A stretch of 50,762 nt of DNA, taken from NCBI GenBank assembly GCA_017436125.1, contig JAFSDS010000068.1:1-50762 (forward strand). Direction: 5' to 3'. The DNA is from Oscillospiraceae bacterium. Lineage in GTDB: Bacteria > Bacillota > Clostridia > Oscillospirales > Ruminococcaceae. Of this stretch, positions 151 to 5,927 are shown piece after piece; position 1 is the first letter of the stretch, and every line of letters begins with the position of its first letter. The position numbers and the translations under genes were made by a program. The notes under the pieces are model-generated. The model had not been told where the DNA came from, did no database searches, and worked only from the letters and a program-made list of their open reading frames with translations.

Positions 151-525
151 ATGGCTTCTGAAAAAATCCAGAACATTCTCGAAGAGATCAAAGCTCTCTC
201 TCTTCTCGAAGCAAACGAACTCAAAAACGCAATCTGCGAGGAATTCGGCGTATCCGCTGATGCTCCCGTAATGGTAGCTGGCGGCGCTGCTGCTGCTCCT
301 GCTGCTGCAACCAAAGACAGCTGGGATGTTGTTCTCACCGGCGCTGGCGAGACCAAAATGGCTGTTATCAAAGCAGTTAAAGAAATCACCGGTCTTGGCC
401 TCAAAGAGTCCAAAGATCTCGTTGACAACCTTCCTAAAGCAGTTAAAGAAGGCGTTTCCGAAACCGAAGCTGACGAAATCAAAAAGAAACTCGAAGAAGC
501 AGGCGCTTCTGTTGAAGTTAAATAA
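151..525 (+). CDS. rplL: 50S ribosomal protein L7/L12
   Basis: A 124-residue stalk protein that recruits translational GTPases to the ribosome. The N-terminal dimerisation helices (about 1-35) are followed by an Ala-rich hinge (about 40-55) and a C-terminal domain containing the conserved [13 protein letters not shown] helix that contacts EF-Tu and EF-G. Length and layout match the family. The start is the ATG at 151, preceded by a strong AGGAGG at about 137-142. It is probably co-transcribed with rplJ. A strong terminator follows directly, and rpoB, the usual next gene, is not present downstream. Confidence 0.98.
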
Positions 526-1770: not shown

Positions 1771-1799
1771 AAAAAAGACGCAAAATCTGCGTCTTTTTT
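1771..1799 (-). terminator. Intrinsic terminator of the GTPase-NYN gene
   Basis: AAAAAAGACGCA / TGCGTCTTTTTT stem with a 5-nt loop; the minus-strand T-run begins right after the stem. It starts next to the stop codon at 1799. Confidence 0.85.
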
Positions 1800-4402
1800 T
1801 AAACCAGTTTATCAATATTATCAAAAGGACGATAAAAGCTTTTTCTTCCGTAAGTTTCGATTGCGGCCTTAATCTGTTTATTGACCCATTCGATTTCCTG
1901 CAAAAGTTCGTTTGCGCTCATTCGAAGAACGCCGCTTCTCAATGCGGCAACCTGAATCAGGTTATCGGAAGTTGCAACTTTTACGTTATAGTTTTTGCCG
2001 ATATCCTGAACAAGTTTTTCGATATACATATCTCCTGTTTCGTTCTCTTTCGTATATGCAACGTGGATATCGTGATAATCGAATTTTTCGCCGTAATTGC
2101 CTTTTACTTTATATCCATCGAAAACAAGAACCAGCTCGCATTTTGTATATCCGCGATAGTTGCTGAGGATATCCATAAGGATATGGCGGGCGGCATCAAG
2201 ATTTTCGTTTGCAAGCTTTTTAAGGCCGTCCCATGCAAAAATGATATTGTATCCGTCAACTATAAGATAATCCTTCTTTTTCGGTGCAGATGATTTATAT
2301 TCCTTCGGGCGGTCCATCACCGCTTCGGAATACTGCTTGCGGCGAATAGGGCCAAATTCCCTTTCCATTATAGCTTCCAGCTCTTTTTCATCAATGCTGA
2401 AGTTTCTGCGGAAAACCTTTACGTTAGGAATAAGCATGATCCCGTTTTCTCCGGAAAAATCAATGCCACTTGAAACATGCATATGTTTTTCTACTTCGTT
2501 CCATTTTACCGTAATACCGGCACCATGGGAACAGAAAACAGAATCCGGGCTGTTAAGAACGTCCGCTTCCGGATCGTATCCTGTTTTTGCAAGGACATCT
2601 TCCGTATTATGGCATGGTGCGTATCCATCGGAGAAACAGACAAGCTTTCCTCTTCCGTGAGTATATGAAAGCACTTCTTTGAGATATGAACGCATAGTGG
2701 AAACCGGGGCGCGGCCGGAAATTTCGACCATATCTCCCCTTGTTTCCGGTGAAGAAAAAGTTCCGTTCATTTCCCTAATGTCATTTATTGCTCTGCCTAT
2801 CTGTTCGGAAGGCACTTCCAAACGGAAGGAATAATAAGGCTCAAGAAGAACGTTTTTCGCTTTCATAAGGCCCTGGCGTACTGCGCGGTAAGTCGCCTGA
2901 CGAAAATCCCCGCCCTCTGTATGTTTTACATGGGCTCTTCCGGCAATAAGGGTTATTTTTATATCGGTTATCGGTGAACCGGTAAGAACTCCGATATGAG
3001 TTTTTTCCGCAAGATGAGTTAGAACAAGCCTTTGCCAGTTACGGTCAAGGTTATCCTCGCTGCATCGCGTTTCAAAATGAAGGCCGCTTCCCGGTTCACC
3101 AGGTTCAAGGATAAGATGGACTTCCGCATAGTGTCGGAGGGGTTCAAAATGCCCAACACCTTCAACCGGTTCCGCAATGGTTTCACGATAAATTATCCTT
3201 CCCTCATCAAGGCCGATTTCCGCTCCAAAACGGTCACTCACCATGCTTTTCAGTATTTCTTCCTGAACTTCGCCCATAAGGCTGGCATATATTCCGCCAA
3301 GCTGTTCATTCCATTCGATATGAAGCTGGGGGTCTTCGTCCTCAAGCTGTTTAAGCTTTGGCAAAAACTGTGCCGGACTTATTCCCTCCGGAAGCTTTAT
3401 TCTATAGGTCAGTACAGGCTCTAAAATCGGCTCAAATCCGCCTTTTTCAAAGCCAAGTCCCTGGCCCGGATATGTTTTTGAAAGCCCCAGAACAGAAACC
3501 ACGCTTCCCTGGGATGCTTCATCAACAGGTTCAAACTTTGCGCCGGAATAGATACGCAGGATGTTGGCCTTTTCCTCGATTTCACCTTCCGTTTCATCTT
3601 TTGAACGATAGGAAACCACCGAGCGGACTTTAAAACTTCCGCCGGTTATTTTCATAAAAGTCATTCTGTTGCCCTGATTATCCCGGGATATCTTAAATAT
3701 CTTTGCGCCGAATTCTTCTTTTTTCGGCGGTTCTTCGGCATATTTTTCGATTCCGGCAATAAACTCATCAATACCGGAAAGTCTTAATGCACTTCCAAAA
3801 AAGCAAGGAAAAACTTTGCGTTCTTTTATGAGCACCGATATTTCATCCGTGCTCAAAGAGCCGTTTTCCATATAATTTTCCATGCTCATTTCATCGCAAA
3901 GAGCGATATTCTCGTAAAAATCCTCGTCCTCAACAGAAAAATCAACACAGCCTTCAGAAAGATTATCCCGAAGATTTTTCATAACAAAGACTTTATCAGT
4001 ATCTTCAAGATCCATTTTGTTTACAAAAACAAAAGTTGGGACATTATAGCGCGAAAGAAGCTTCCATAAAGTTTCGGTATGTACCTGCACCCCGTCCCTT
4101 GCACTTATAACAAGAATAGCGTAGTCAAGTACCTGAAGTGTGCGTTCTGTTTCTGAAGAAAAGTCAACATGTCCGGGGGTATCAAGAAGGGTCAGTTCGG
4201 TATTTTCTGTTTTTATTACCGCCTGCTTTGAAAAAATGGTTATTCCGCGTTCGCGCTCAAGTTCATAGTTATCGAGAAAAGCGTTTTTGTTATCCACTCT
4301 TCCGAGTTTTTTTACTCTTCCGGTGGAATATAAGAGCGCTTCCGAAAGGGTTGTTTTTCCTGCGTCAACATGCGCAAGAATGCCCACAACCAGTTTTTTC
4401 AT
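1799..4402 (-). CDS. TetM-like ribosomal GTPase fused to a C-terminal YacP/Rae1-type NYN domain
   Basis: A protein of 867 residues; plain ribosomal protection proteins have about 640. The N-terminus is an EF-G/TetM-family translational GTPase: AHVDAGKTT (10-18, G1), RERG switch (50-53), DTPGH (74-78, G3), NKMD (128-131, G4). Domains II to V follow to about residue 690. From about 712 to 845 there is a NYN nuclease fold of the YacP type, with VDGYN (715-719), VFDGY near 760, GDMYIEKL near 790 and ATSD near 810; these carry the family's acidic residues. In Bacillus subtilis the single-domain YacP (Rae1) cuts mRNA in the ribosomal A site. The fusion therefore suggests a GTPase that brings a nuclease to the ribosome. 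The start ATG at 4402 has AAAGGGGG upstream. The leader is only about 30 nt, with no tet(M)-type attenuator. Tetracycline protection remains possible but is not implied. Confidence 0.9.
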   Translation of the reverse strand: MKKLVVGILAHVDAGKTTLSEALLYSTGRVKKLGRVDNKNAFLDNYELERERGITIFSKQAVIKTENTELTLLDTPGHVDFSSETERTLQVLDYAILVISARDGVQVHTETLWKLLSRYNVPTFVFVNKMDLEDTDKVFVMKNLRDNLSEGCVDFSVEDEDFYENIALCDEMSMENYMENGSLSTDEISVLIKERKVFPCFFGSALRLSGIDEFIAGIEKYAEEPPKKEEFGAKIFKISRDNQGNRMTFMKITGGSFKVRSVVSYRSKDETEGEIEEKANILRIYSGAKFEPVDEASQGSVVSVLGLSKTYPGQGLGFEKGGFEPILEPVLTYRIKLPEGISPAQFLPKLKQLEDEDPQLHIEWNEQLGGIYASLMGEVQEEILKSMVSDRFGAEIGLDEGRIIYRETIAEPVEGVGHFEPLRHYAEVHLILEPGEPGSGLHFETRCSEDNLDRNWQRLVLTHLAEKTHIGVLTGSPITDIKITLIAGRAHVKHTEGGDFRQATYRAVRQGLMKAKNVLLEPYYSFRLEVPSEQIGRAINDIREMNGTFSSPETRGDMVEISGRAPVSTMRSYLKEVLSYTHGRGKLVCFSDGYAPCHNTEDVLAKTGYDPEADVLNSPDSVFCSHGAGITVKWNEVEKHMHVSSGIDFSGENGIMLIPNVKVFRRNFSIDEKELEAIMEREFGPIRRKQYSEAVMDRPKEYKSSAPKKKDYLIVDGYNIIFAWDGLKKLANENLDAARHILMDILSNYRGYTKCELVLVFDGYKVKGNYGEKFDYHDIHVAYTKENETGDMYIEKLVQDIGKNYNVKVATSDNLIQVAALRSGVLRMSANELLQEIEWVNKQIKAAIETYGRKSFYRPFDNIDKLV

Positions 4403-4435
4403 TCTTTTACCCCCTTTCTTACAAAATATAAAACT

Positions 4436-4444
4436 ATTATATCA
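4436..4444 (-). promoter_or_regulatory. Extended -10 promoter of the GTPase-NYN gene
   Basis: Minus-strand TGATATAAT at 4436-4444, with no good -35 at 17 bp. It gives a leader of about 30 nt. Confidence 0.55.
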
Positions 4445-4508
4445 TTAAATTCTGTTTATTAAAAGAGATATATAAAAAATGCCTTTTCGGAATATTTTTT
4501 CTTATATG

Positions 4509-4537
4509 TTGACCGGCAATCCATTTAATTATATAAT
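4509..4537 (+). promoter_or_regulatory. Sigma-A promoter of the 4561 gene
   Basis: TTGACC (4509-4514), 17 bp, TATAAT (4532-4537), followed 10 bp later by AAAAGGAGG. Confidence 0.8.
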
Positions 4538-4560
4538 CGAAGTGAAAAGGAGGTTTTGGT

Positions 4561-5127
4561 ATGCTGAAAAACGTAAAATTCCTTCAATGTGCCGCGGCAA
4601 TTCTGCTTGTTGTCTGCGTTCTTATGGGAATACATATCGTTAAAGACCGTTCTCTTATGTATAAAGAACGCGAACACTATGTAAGTACTTTTTCCGCACA
4701 GACGGAAGGCGTTCTTGAATGGATCCAAACCGCCCTTGAATCCGATGATTCTAAAGAGATATCCGCTTCTCTCGCCAATGCACAGAACTATCTTGAATCG
4801 CTTACAGATACCGCCTATGCCGGCACCTATTATTCAATCTGTTATAATACCCTTTTAACCGAAAAAACTTTTTTCAGCGGTGCCGGAATGTTCTATCACG
4901 ATCTTATGGTAATGAGCGGAAGATTTACCGAAATACTCGAAAATCTTTCAGAAAACAACGCTCTTTCCGAAGAAGATACCGAATATCTTGAATATGCCGA
5001 AGAGGCTTTTTCCTATCTTTTCGAGCGTCTTGAAACAGACGGAATCATAAATAAACAGGCAATAAAAAGCGATACCTATCTTTCAAATGCCTGCGGATAT
5101 TTTTGCTATATGATGCTTAATAAATAA
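4561..5127 (+). CDS. Uncharacterised membrane-anchored extracytoplasmic protein
   Basis: 188 residues, function unknown. A single hydrophobic segment (about 8-27, FLQCAAAILLVVCVLMGIHI) acts as a signal anchor, or as a signal peptide without a clear cleavage site. The rest is mainly helical, acidic and amphipathic (residues 40-150), which suggests an extracytoplasmic helical bundle; no catalytic motif is visible. The start ATG at 4561 has AAAAGGAGG 8 nt upstream and a good sigma-A promoter, so it is a single-gene transcript ending at the 5126-5157 terminator. Its layout resembles bacterial sensors without their signalling domains, but there is no partner kinase nearby. Confidence 0.8.
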   Translation: MLKNVKFLQCAAAILLVVCVLMGIHIVKDRSLMYKEREHYVSTFSAQTEGVLEWIQTALESDDSKEISASLANAQNYLESLTDTAYAGTYYSICYNTLLTEKTFFSGAGMFYHDLMVMSGRFTEILENLSENNALSEEDTEYLEYAEEAFSYLFERLETDGIINKQAIKSDTYLSNACGYFCYMMLNK

Positions 5128-5157
5128 AAAAACACCCGCTTTTGCGGGTGTTTTTTA
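5126..5157. terminator. Bidirectional terminator
   Basis: AACACCCGC / GCGGGTGTT stem with TTTT loop, flanked by A-run and T-run; it serves the convergent genes on both sides. Confidence 0.9.
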
Positions 5158-5511
5158 TTAAAGAAATTTTTCAAGCTCGGAAAAATCAAATTCATCCAAA
5201 ACGGCATTTTTTTCATAATGCAGGATTTCTCCGGTTTTAAGATTTATGGTCATGGCATCTTTTCCGAACGTTACCGTCAATTCCTCACCGTTGAGAGATC
5301 CGCTGTATTCCCCATCCTTATCATGTTCTGTAACGATTGCGATACGAAGGGTTTTGTCCGTTTTAGCGATTATTCTTACAGCGTCGTGGCTGCGGCTTCT
5401 TTCAATATTATTCGGATTGAAAATGATATCATAGTTTTCATCCTCGCAGCCAAGAACAAATTTTTCATCTATTTCAAGCACCGCAGTACATTTTTCATTC
5501 TTCAAAATCAT
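5158..5511 (-). CDS. Uncharacterised small cytoplasmic protein
   Basis: 117 residues, no signal peptide or membrane segment, not recognised. It alternates short beta-like stretches (CTAVLEIDEKFVLG, AVRIIAKTDKTLRIAIV, ELTVTFGKDAMTINL), which points to an all-beta fold. The start ATG at 5511 is preceded by GGAGGG, which overlaps the end of the upstream lipoprotein gene 14 bp away, so the two are very probably co-transcribed and the protein may assist that lipoprotein or share its condition of expression. It ends at a strong shared terminator. Confidence 0.75.
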   Translation of the reverse strand: MILKNEKCTAVLEIDEKFVLGCEDENYDIIFNPNNIERSRSHDAVRIIAKTDKTLRIAIVTEHDKDGEYSGSLNGEELTVTFGKDAMTINLKTGEILHYEKNAVLDEFDFSELEKFL

Positions 5512-5525
5512 AAAACAGCCCTCCT

Positions 5526-5927
5526 TCAGCCGTATCCCCAGGTCACAAGCCTCCAGGCTCCACCTTTATTGCGAACAAGTATCCAGTTCCAACCATCATA
5601 AGTTTCTCCTACTGCAAGGCTTCCGTCACCTTCTGCAGCAACATAGAATTTTGATAGAAGGACTATTCCCTCGTCATAGCCGTAGTTTTCTGCCCATTCC
5701 TTGGCTCTTTCTTTTGAATATTTTTCATCATATTCAAGTTCAATAAGAATACAGCCTTCAAAGTCAAGGCCGAATTTTTTATATACCTTGAACATTGCGG
5801 AATTTATCTCATCTTCCGTAAAAATATCGGAATCTGAAATGATTTTTTCCGCCATAAAGCTTATTCCGCAGCCGGAAAAACTAAAAATCATAATAACAGC
5901 AAAAACAGCCGCCAAAAATTTTTTCAT
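5526..5927 (-). CDS. Small putative lipoprotein
   Basis: 133 residues. The start is the ATG at 5927, which has GGAGG 6 nt upstream; a longer reading from 5990 lacks a ribosome binding site and would bury the signal. Residues 1-20 form a lipoprotein signal (KK, then a hydrophobic core, then lipobox FSGC), so the protein should be lipid-anchored on the outer face of the membrane. The mature part is acidic with aromatic residues (GYDEGIVLLSKFYVAAEGDG, TYDGWNWILV). A TATAAT lies at 5962-5967 on the minus strand, with only a weak -35. Function unknown. It forms an operon with the 5158-5511 gene. Confidence 0.8.
   Translation of the reverse strand: MKKFLAAVFAVIMIFSFSGCGISFMAEKIISDSDIFTEDEINSAMFKVYKKFGLDFEGCILIELEYDEKYSKERAKEWAENYGYDEGIVLLSKFYVAAEGDGSLAVGETYDGWNWILVRNKGGAWRLVTWGYG

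What the first reader, a model, noticed from the sequence alone, without database searches (positions are those of the whole stretch)
1799..4402. TetM-like ribosomal GTPase fused to a YacP/Rae1-type NYN nuclease domain
One 867-residue chain joins a translational GTPase of the tetracycline-protection type (intact G1, G3, G4 motifs) with a NYN domain at about 712-845 that keeps the acidic residues (VDGYN, FDGY, GDMYIE, ATSD). TetM enters the ribosomal A site, and Rae1, the stand-alone relative of the second domain, cuts mRNA in that site. The fusion suggests a single factor that recognises stalled or occupied ribosomes and cleaves the mRNA. The short leader without an attenuator argues against drug-induced expression.
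Basis: partly seen in the sequence, partly recalled or inferred. Interest (0 to 1): 0.72.

Follow-up and report, generated by a model that had tools for sequence, protein, structure and literature searches.

The report
Ribosome GTPase with built-in mRNA cutter
Many clostridial bacteria carry a ribosome-type GTPase joined to an RNA-cutting domain that elsewhere is a separate protein, and the joined protein seems to have taken over from that separate cutter rather than to give tetracycline resistance.

Summary
Window 1799-4402, minus strand, encodes 867 residues: a five-domain EF-G/Tet-like GTPase (1-599), a conserved tail (600-642), a low-confidence linker (643-710) and a complete Rae1-type NYN domain (711-853) whose acidic motif residues are kept in 41 of 41 aligned fusions. 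The architecture is in print: Atkinson 2015 (PMC4342817) noted it in ten clostridial species and suggested a resistance mechanism.

What I add argues against resistance. The domain IV tip that lets TetM displace tetracycline (Ser508-Pro509-Val510) reads Val-Lys-His here. All 41 fusions carry H-x-[K/Q]-H-T-x-G-G-D-F-R there, and the protein misses NCBI's Tet cut-offs. The GTPase belongs to a sister subfamily of TetM/O/Q that also exists unfused. In 391 genomes of the window's class the fusion and free Rae1 almost exclude each other: 1 of 132 fused genomes has both. In one genus a relative without the fusion keeps rae1 beside rlmB, one fused relative has a decayed rae1 there, and four have none found.

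Best reading: a GTPase-tethered ribosomal A-site mRNA endonuclease that replaced Rae1. Ribosome binding, GTP dependence and cleavage are inferred. Interest 0.6.

The parts
1799..4402 (-). whole fusion gene (867 codons plus stop)
   Evidence: Pfam
3737..4390 (-). GTPase G domain, residues 5-222, with G1 AHVDAGKTT, G3 DTPGH and G4 NKMD
   Evidence: conservation in 41 sequences
3473..3712 (-). domain II, residues 231-310 (weak Pfam match, below cut-off)
   Evidence: fold
3209..3421 (-). domain III, residues 328-398 (weak Pfam match, below cut-off)
   Evidence: fold
2855..3202 (-). domain IV, residues 401-516, the arm whose tip in TetM reaches the tetracycline site
   Evidence: role of the TetM tip from PMC7456112 passages
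3116..3160 (-). domain IV loop I, residues 415-429; 417-430 read GH[FY]EPLRHY[AS]EVH[LV] in 41 of 41 fusions (the name loop I is recalled)
2900..2935 (-). domain IV loop III AHVKHTEGGDFR, residues 490-501, in place of TetM YYSPVSTPADFR (506-517)
2606..2851 (-). domain V, residues 518-599
2477..2605 (-). conserved tail, residues 600-642, shared with the unfused GTPases, most of which end here
2273..2476 (-). low-confidence charged linker, residues 643-710 (66-114 aa in the 41 fusions, median 75)
1844..2272 (-). NYN_YacP (Rae1-type) nuclease domain, residues 711-853
4410..4416 (-). probable ribosome-binding site AAGGGGG; a TATAAT lies at 4436-4441 with no good -35 (read by eye)
   Evidence: sequence; the scanner did not report it

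Best explanation
This is a ribosome-dependent mRNA endonuclease in which Rae1 has become a tethered C-terminal domain of an EF-G/Tet-family GTPase. Proposed course: the GTPase, in its GTP form, lands in the factor site of a ribosome with an accessible (stalled or slow) A site. Its domain IV tip, with a conserved His/Lys/Arg-rich signature, probes the decoding centre. GTP hydrolysis withdraws domain IV. The NYN domain, held nearby by a linker of about 70 residues, then enters the vacated A site and cuts the mRNA, as free Rae1 does in B. subtilis. The two domains probably act in turn, because domain IV and Rae1 would compete for the same site. The fusion has taken over the job of the separate rae1 gene. 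Shown here: architecture, intact motifs, absence of the tetracycline-displacing tip, near-exclusion with free Rae1, empty or decayed rae1 slot. Inferred: ribosome binding, order of events, GTP dependence, substrate and physiological role.
For: NYN part: Pfam NYN_YacP 2.3e-44; the only PDB sequence matches up to E 1 are the two B. subtilis YacP/Rae1 sequences, 7e-26; acidic motif residues 41 of 41. GTPase part: G motifs kept in 41 of 41; the 50 best Foldseek hits listed are EF-G-type factors and EF-2. Replacement: of 391 class genomes 132 have the fusion frame, and 1 of those 132 (G330) also a free Rae1, against 109 of the other 259 (Fisher 8e-23, related genomes not corrected for, 21 of the 109 not looked at individually). 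In 8 of 14 fused genomes examined rlmB and sigH are still neighbours (HMM-edge gaps 178-346 bp in six, 634 and 636 in two), and a tblastn search of these 8 slots finds a Rae1-like stretch in one only, the broken remnant of G025. Free Rae1 sits in that slot in G330 and G121 and in B. subtilis. Genus g39: G059 has an RNase III-type gene (mrnC), rlmB, rae1 and a sigma-70-type gene in the sigH place, and no GTPase of this subfamily. G025 has the fusion plus a rae1 remnant (tblastn 1.4e-13 in a database of 9 loci, with one of two queries; two pieces in different frames, three stops in the first). G136, G201, G366 and G294 have the fusion and no remnant found. Not Tet: TetM P509 aligns with K493, and Pro509 overlaps the tetracycline site (PMC7456112, passages). 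Rae1 is called a ribosomal A-site endoribonuclease, with stalling hypothesised to raise its access to mRNA, in PMC6613710 (passages), citing Leroy 2017, which is not held.
Against: No biochemical data. The GTPase also occurs in genomes without a NYN match (9 of 164 GTPase genomes), and 94 of 249 NYN genomes lack a GTPase match at the cut-off used (one of the 94, G180, is a truncated fusion), so neither needs the other everywhere. An apparent NYN loss from a fused ancestor (L186, possibly L172) shows the GTPase can do without it. G330 keeps both a fusion and a free Rae1. The exclusion test counts related genomes as independent. Ribosome geometry was not modelled, and the placement of the NYN relative to domain IV is undetermined (pTM 0.62).
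Confidence: 0.6

Rival explanations
1. Tetracycline (or other A-site antibiotic) resistance protein with an accessory RNase, as Atkinson 2015 suggested.
For: The closest curated NCBI model is tet_protect; the GTPase clade is sister to TetM/O/Q; one fusion seen, in Agathobacter rectalis, is named 'TetM/TetW/TetO/TetS family' (another, in Monoglobus, only 'translation factor GTPase family').
Against: Cut-offs not met while TetM/TetO meet them; the Pro509 position is Lys in 40 of 41 fusions and Gln in 1; fusions fall under at least 26 of the family labels of the class draw, typically one per genome; of 72,556 PLSDB records 2 cover at least 80% of the protein, and the two fusions identified there lie on large replicons typed non-mobilizable (3 of 23 NYN rows were not listed); no Rfam match nearby.
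Confidence: 0.12
2. The nuclease target is not mRNA but rRNA or tRNA on the ribosome: the GTPase delivers the NYN domain to process or inactivate ribosomes, or to trim A-site tRNA.
For: [quoted passage not shown]
Against: The nearest characterised relative, Rae1, is described as a ribosomal A-site endoribonuclease with an mRNA substrate, and the gene-replacement evidence says the fusion inherited that job.
Confidence: 0.13
3. The two domains act independently and the fusion only fixes stoichiometry or co-expression; the GTPase has its own (unknown) role.
For: Unfused GTPases and free Rae1 exist, together and apart; linker of 66-114 residues; G243 carries a free NYN that groups with the fused NYNs plus a separate GTPase.
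Against: 132 of 391 genomes have the fusion, the 41 aligned ones keep all six NYN motif positions, and the free gene is missing from 131 of the 132.
Confidence: 0.15

Closest known systems
Tet proteins fused to a YacP-like NYN domain (Atkinson 2015, PMC4342817)
   Same: Same architecture: Tet-class translational GTPase plus a YacP-like NYN domain, in clostridia.
   Different: That paper (passages seen) counted ten species and proposed antibiotic resistance. Here the GTPase falls in a sister subfamily lacking the TetM tip, and the fusion appears to have replaced rae1.
Rae1/YacP of Bacillus subtilis (PDB 5mq8, 5mq9)
   Same: 136 residues align at 7e-26; VDGYN, FD, the Asp of ETAD/ETGD and ATSD are kept.
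   Different: Rae1 is free-standing in the rlmB-rae1-sigH cluster; here it is a tethered domain elsewhere in the genome.
TetM / TetO / TetQ ribosomal protection proteins
   Same: Five-domain EF-G-like GTPase; nearest characterised GTPases in the trees.
   Different: About 30% identity to TetM and TetO; YYSPVSTPADFR tip (TetM, TetO) replaced by AHVKHTEGGDFR; different C-terminal tail.
EF-G and EF-G paralogues
   Same: Same fold (best Foldseek hits) and G-domain motifs.
   Different: Own domain IV tip signature; NYN domain added; 280 bits on the EF-G model against a cut-off of 659.

Membership tests
Tetracycline ribosomal protection proteins (Tet) | Score over NCBI curated cut-offs (NF012153 775; NF033148 1100) | tested here: not met
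   421 and 280 bits; TetM 876/1334 and TetO 851/1307 as controls
Tetracycline ribosomal protection proteins (Tet) | Domain IV tip Ser-Pro-Val (508-510) that displaces the drug | tested here: not met
   V492-K493-H494 here; the P509 position is Lys in 40 of 41 fusions and Gln in 1
Tetracycline ribosomal protection proteins (Tet) | Confers tetracycline resistance | not testable with these tools
   needs an MIC test
Rae1 / NYN_YacP | Score over the Pfam cut-off and match to the solved Rae1 | tested here: met
   151.7 bits vs 24.6; 5mq8/5mq9 at 7e-26
Rae1 / NYN_YacP | Conserved acidic residues of the NYN motifs | tested here: met
   D716, N719, D762, D791, E795, D813 in 41 of 41
Rae1 / NYN_YacP | Position between rlmB and sigH | tested here: not met
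   the fusion lies elsewhere; in the 8 of 14 fused genomes where rlmB and sigH are still neighbours the slot holds no intact rae1. In the window's own genome the two genes are not neighbours, so its own slot could not be read
Rae1 / NYN_YacP | Ribosome-dependent A-site mRNA cleavage | not testable with these tools
   -
EF-G/Tet translational GTPases (EF2 family) | Intact G1, G3, G4 motifs and five-domain layout | tested here: met
   domains II and III weak in Pfam but present in the model
EF-G/Tet translational GTPases (EF2 family) | Ribosome binding and ribosome-stimulated GTP hydrolysis | not testable with these tools
   -

The most novel reading that the evidence does not exclude
A GTP-licensed A-site mRNA endonuclease: a translational GTPase that inspects the decoding centre with a new His/Lys/Arg-rich domain IV tip, then hands the emptied A site to its own tethered Rae1. 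It would be a one-protein stalled-ribosome mRNA-decay factor that displaced free Rae1 across a large part of Clostridia, and its unfused sister GTPase would be Rae1's partner in trans in Clostridium.
Probability: 0.4. Interest if true: 0.82.

Novelty: new variant of a known kind. Interest (0 to 1): 0.6.

Why it matters
If true, a translational GTPase found in 164 of 391 sampled genomes of the class, at least sometimes annotated as tetracycline resistance, is an mRNA-surveillance enzyme. That would correct resistance annotations, give Rae1 a delivery mechanism (how it reaches its ribosomes is, to my knowledge, open), and be a bacterial case in which a translational GTPase carries its own mRNA nuclease. 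The gene-swap series in one genus makes the replacement directly testable.

Tried and rejected
Tetracycline-resistance reading: tested by curated cut-offs, tip residues, plasmid records and leader; disfavoured. Anti-phage defence: no PADLOC match up to E 0.1. Sequencing artefact or chance frame: rejected, because 132 of 391 genomes have the same joined frame and 40 of 40 fetched ones are true fusions. Co-occurrence of unfused GTPase with free Rae1 as support for a partnership: weak (16 of 25 against 94 of 227, p 0.035, not corrected for relatedness, and one of the 16, G224, may be a fusion split over contigs), so not relied on. Single origin of the fusion: the trees are compatible, but the node that holds all fusions has low support (0.23, 0.31) and also contains L172 or L172 and L186, so I call it likely, not shown. 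NYN tree: only 12 clostridial free NYNs (of 25 free ones among loci L002-L031) passed my pattern, plus B. subtilis; the clade of fused NYNs (with L024) has support 0.77. The retrieval used the tip motifs themselves, so its 80 loci are not independent evidence for the tip; the 41 fusions were drawn through the NYN domain and are. One search was a wrong query (DNA of a whole locus) and told nothing; redone as a protein. A possible second paper in the listing (PMC8547433) was opened and its held main text has none of the terms YacP, NYN or GTPase.

Full report
WHAT IS THERE. The ORF is real and lies on the minus strand of window 1799-4402. Pfam reads a translational GTPase with EF-G domains IV and V, weak domains II and III, and a NYN_YacP domain at 713-851. 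The NYN stretch alone finds only the two solved YacP sequences of B. subtilis in the PDB up to E 1, at 7e-26. AlphaFold2 on an alignment of 41 gives mean pLDDT 81.8 with low confidence over about 641-710, and the 50 best Foldseek hits listed for the whole model are EF-G-type factors and EF-2. pTM is 0.62, so I draw nothing from how the NYN is placed.

HOW GENERAL IT IS. PF05991 was sought in 391 genomes of the class: 249 have it. A profile of domains IV-V of the fusions finds the GTPase in 164 of 391 at E 1e-60. Joined: both 155, NYN only 94, GTPase only 9, neither 133. Of the 155, 132 have the NYN in a single frame of at least 580 codons, 7 in shorter frames, and 16 have it in a small frame of its own. 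Of the 7, G051 is a frameshifted fusion and G328 a fusion split over two contigs; the other five have both matches next to each other on one contig. Of the 94 NYN-only genomes, 72 were seen to be free-standing, 21 were not looked up, and one (G180) is a truncated fusion. The fusion occurs under at least 26 of the anonymous family labels. In the phylum draw 30 of 398 genomes have the GTPase, 23 with a fusion-sized frame and 7 with an unfused one; 8 of those 30 were already in the class draw. Among the best 80 named loci 72 are fused and 7 unfused (the pattern missed one Paenibacillus locus, L177, whose 658-codon frame was seen).

THE GTPASE IS NOT A TET PROTEIN IN THE FUNCTIONAL SENSE. It misses NCBI's Tet cut-offs, which TetM and TetO pass. 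Over the GTPase part it is about 30% identical to TetM and TetO, 53-63% to 12 sampled fusions and 41-49% to 15 full unfused relatives. In the alignment TetM S508-P509-V510 correspond to V492-K493-H494. All 41 fusions read H-x-[KQ]-H-T-[EQD]-G-G-D-F-R there, with Lys at 493 in 40 and Gln in 1, and GH[FY]EPLRHY[AS]EVH[LV] in loop I. Pro509 of TetM is the residue that overlaps the drug site (PMC7456112 and PMC8161019, passages). In FastTree trees the fused and unfused proteins form one clade (0.983, 0.997) separate from TetM/O/Q (0.996), with the fusions nested among unfused GTPases (0.999 and 1.0 for the group of all fusions plus two unfused sisters). The node holding all fusions is itself weak (0.234 and 0.311). 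Most unfused proteins end where the linker of the fusions begins: the fusion is a complete GTPase, a linker of 66-114 residues (median 75) and a complete Rae1.

THE FUSION HAS TAKEN THE PLACE OF FREE Rae1. Only 1 of 132 fused genomes (G330) also has a free Rae1 (the second matches in G136, G201 and G242 are sub-cut-off hits of 21-22 bits, and G133's second match is another fusion). In B. subtilis rae1 lies between rlmB and sigH; so it does in G330 and G121. In 14 fused genomes I looked for that slot. In 8, rlmB and sigH are still neighbours (HMM-edge gaps 178, 221, 253, 284, 337, 346, 634, 636 bp). A tblastn search of these 8 slots with two free Rae1 proteins gave one real hit, the remnant of G025, and one chance-level hit of 16 residues (E 0.9) in G348; frames of five of the 8 were also listed and hold no NYN there. 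In the other 6, the window's own genome included, rlmB and sigH are not neighbours, so the test says nothing. Genus g39 shows the steps: G059 has an RNase III-type gene, rlmB, rae1 and a sigma-70-type gene in the sigH place, and no such GTPase; G025 has the fusion and a rae1 remnant in two pieces, in different frames, with three stops in the first (1.4e-13); G136, G201, G366 and G294 have the fusion and no remnant found; G242, also fused, was not examined. This is the strongest evidence that the fusion does Rae1's job. The window's own genome has one NYN_YacP match, this one, but it is only 87% complete.

HOW IT PROBABLY WORKS. Rae1 is described as a ribosomal A-site endoribonuclease whose access is hypothesised to rise with stalling (PMC6613710, passages; the primary paper is not held). 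EF-G-type GTPases put domain IV into the same site. One protein cannot have both there at once, so I infer a sequence: GTPase binding and inspection of the A site, GTP hydrolysis and withdrawal of domain IV, entry of the tethered NYN, cleavage. The long linker fits a tether; nothing here shows the order. Against a strict dependence: 9 of 164 GTPase genomes have no NYN match, 94 of 249 NYN genomes have no such GTPase match, and L186 (and perhaps L172, near a contig end) seem to have lost the NYN.

WHAT IS KNOWN. The architecture is in print: Atkinson 2015 reports it in ten clostridial species and suggests a new antibiotic-resistance mechanism (PMC4342817, passages). Five searches for papers joining the terms listed no other paper that I could tie to this fusion; the library holds open-licence papers only, and of the 30 papers only 15 were listed and none of these was opened for it. 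So the fusion is not new. The separate subfamily, its tip signature and the replacement of rae1 are, as far as these searches show, not described.

VERDICT. Observation confirmed. Interpretation partly right: a ribosome-linked nuclease is well supported by inheritance, the Tet reading is not. Interest 0.6, because function remains unassayed and the architecture was catalogued before.

Noticed in passing
L186 (Ligilactobacillus salivarius megaplasmid NZ_CP020859.1), 3992-5911: Unfused relative with transposase genes on both sides, annotated as Tet family, that groups inside the fused clade beside the window (node 0.81): perhaps transferred to a lactobacillus with loss of the NYN domain.
   Followed up: partly
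L024 / L189 (G243) and L231: A free 173-residue NYN whose sequence groups with the fused NYNs (node 0.77), in a genome whose GTPase is separate and of the Clostridium-type unfused group: a nuclease domain that may have been set free again.
   Followed up: partly
L205 (G025), 2355-2715, between rlmB and sigH: Decayed rae1 remnant in a genome that carries the fusion.
   Followed up: yes
G222 contig 1, about 4605800-4612500: Here the fusion gene lies about 3.5 kb from sigH and rlmB, unlike in the other 7 fused genomes with a readable slot; might bear on where the fusion arose.
   Followed up: no
H46, H47 (MT835563.1, MT835514.1, faecal 'Bacteriophage sp.' records): Unannotated faecal phage records hold NYN domains 57% and 51% identical to the window's; could be misassigned bacterial contigs or phage-carried copies.
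   Followed up: no
plasmid records of B. subtilis (NZ_AP028965.1) and Clostridioides difficile (NZ_CP149760.1): PLSDB 'plasmids' that carry rae1: the B. subtilis one holds the gltX-cysS-rlmB-rae1-sigH-rplL cluster and the C. difficile one also holds fusA and tuf, so they may be chromosome pieces.
   Followed up: no
window 151-525 and 579-1352: ORFs that by eye are rplL (L7/L12) and a helix-turn-helix regulator lie next to the fusion; rplL is also near rae1 in B. subtilis. Probably chance.
   Followed up: no
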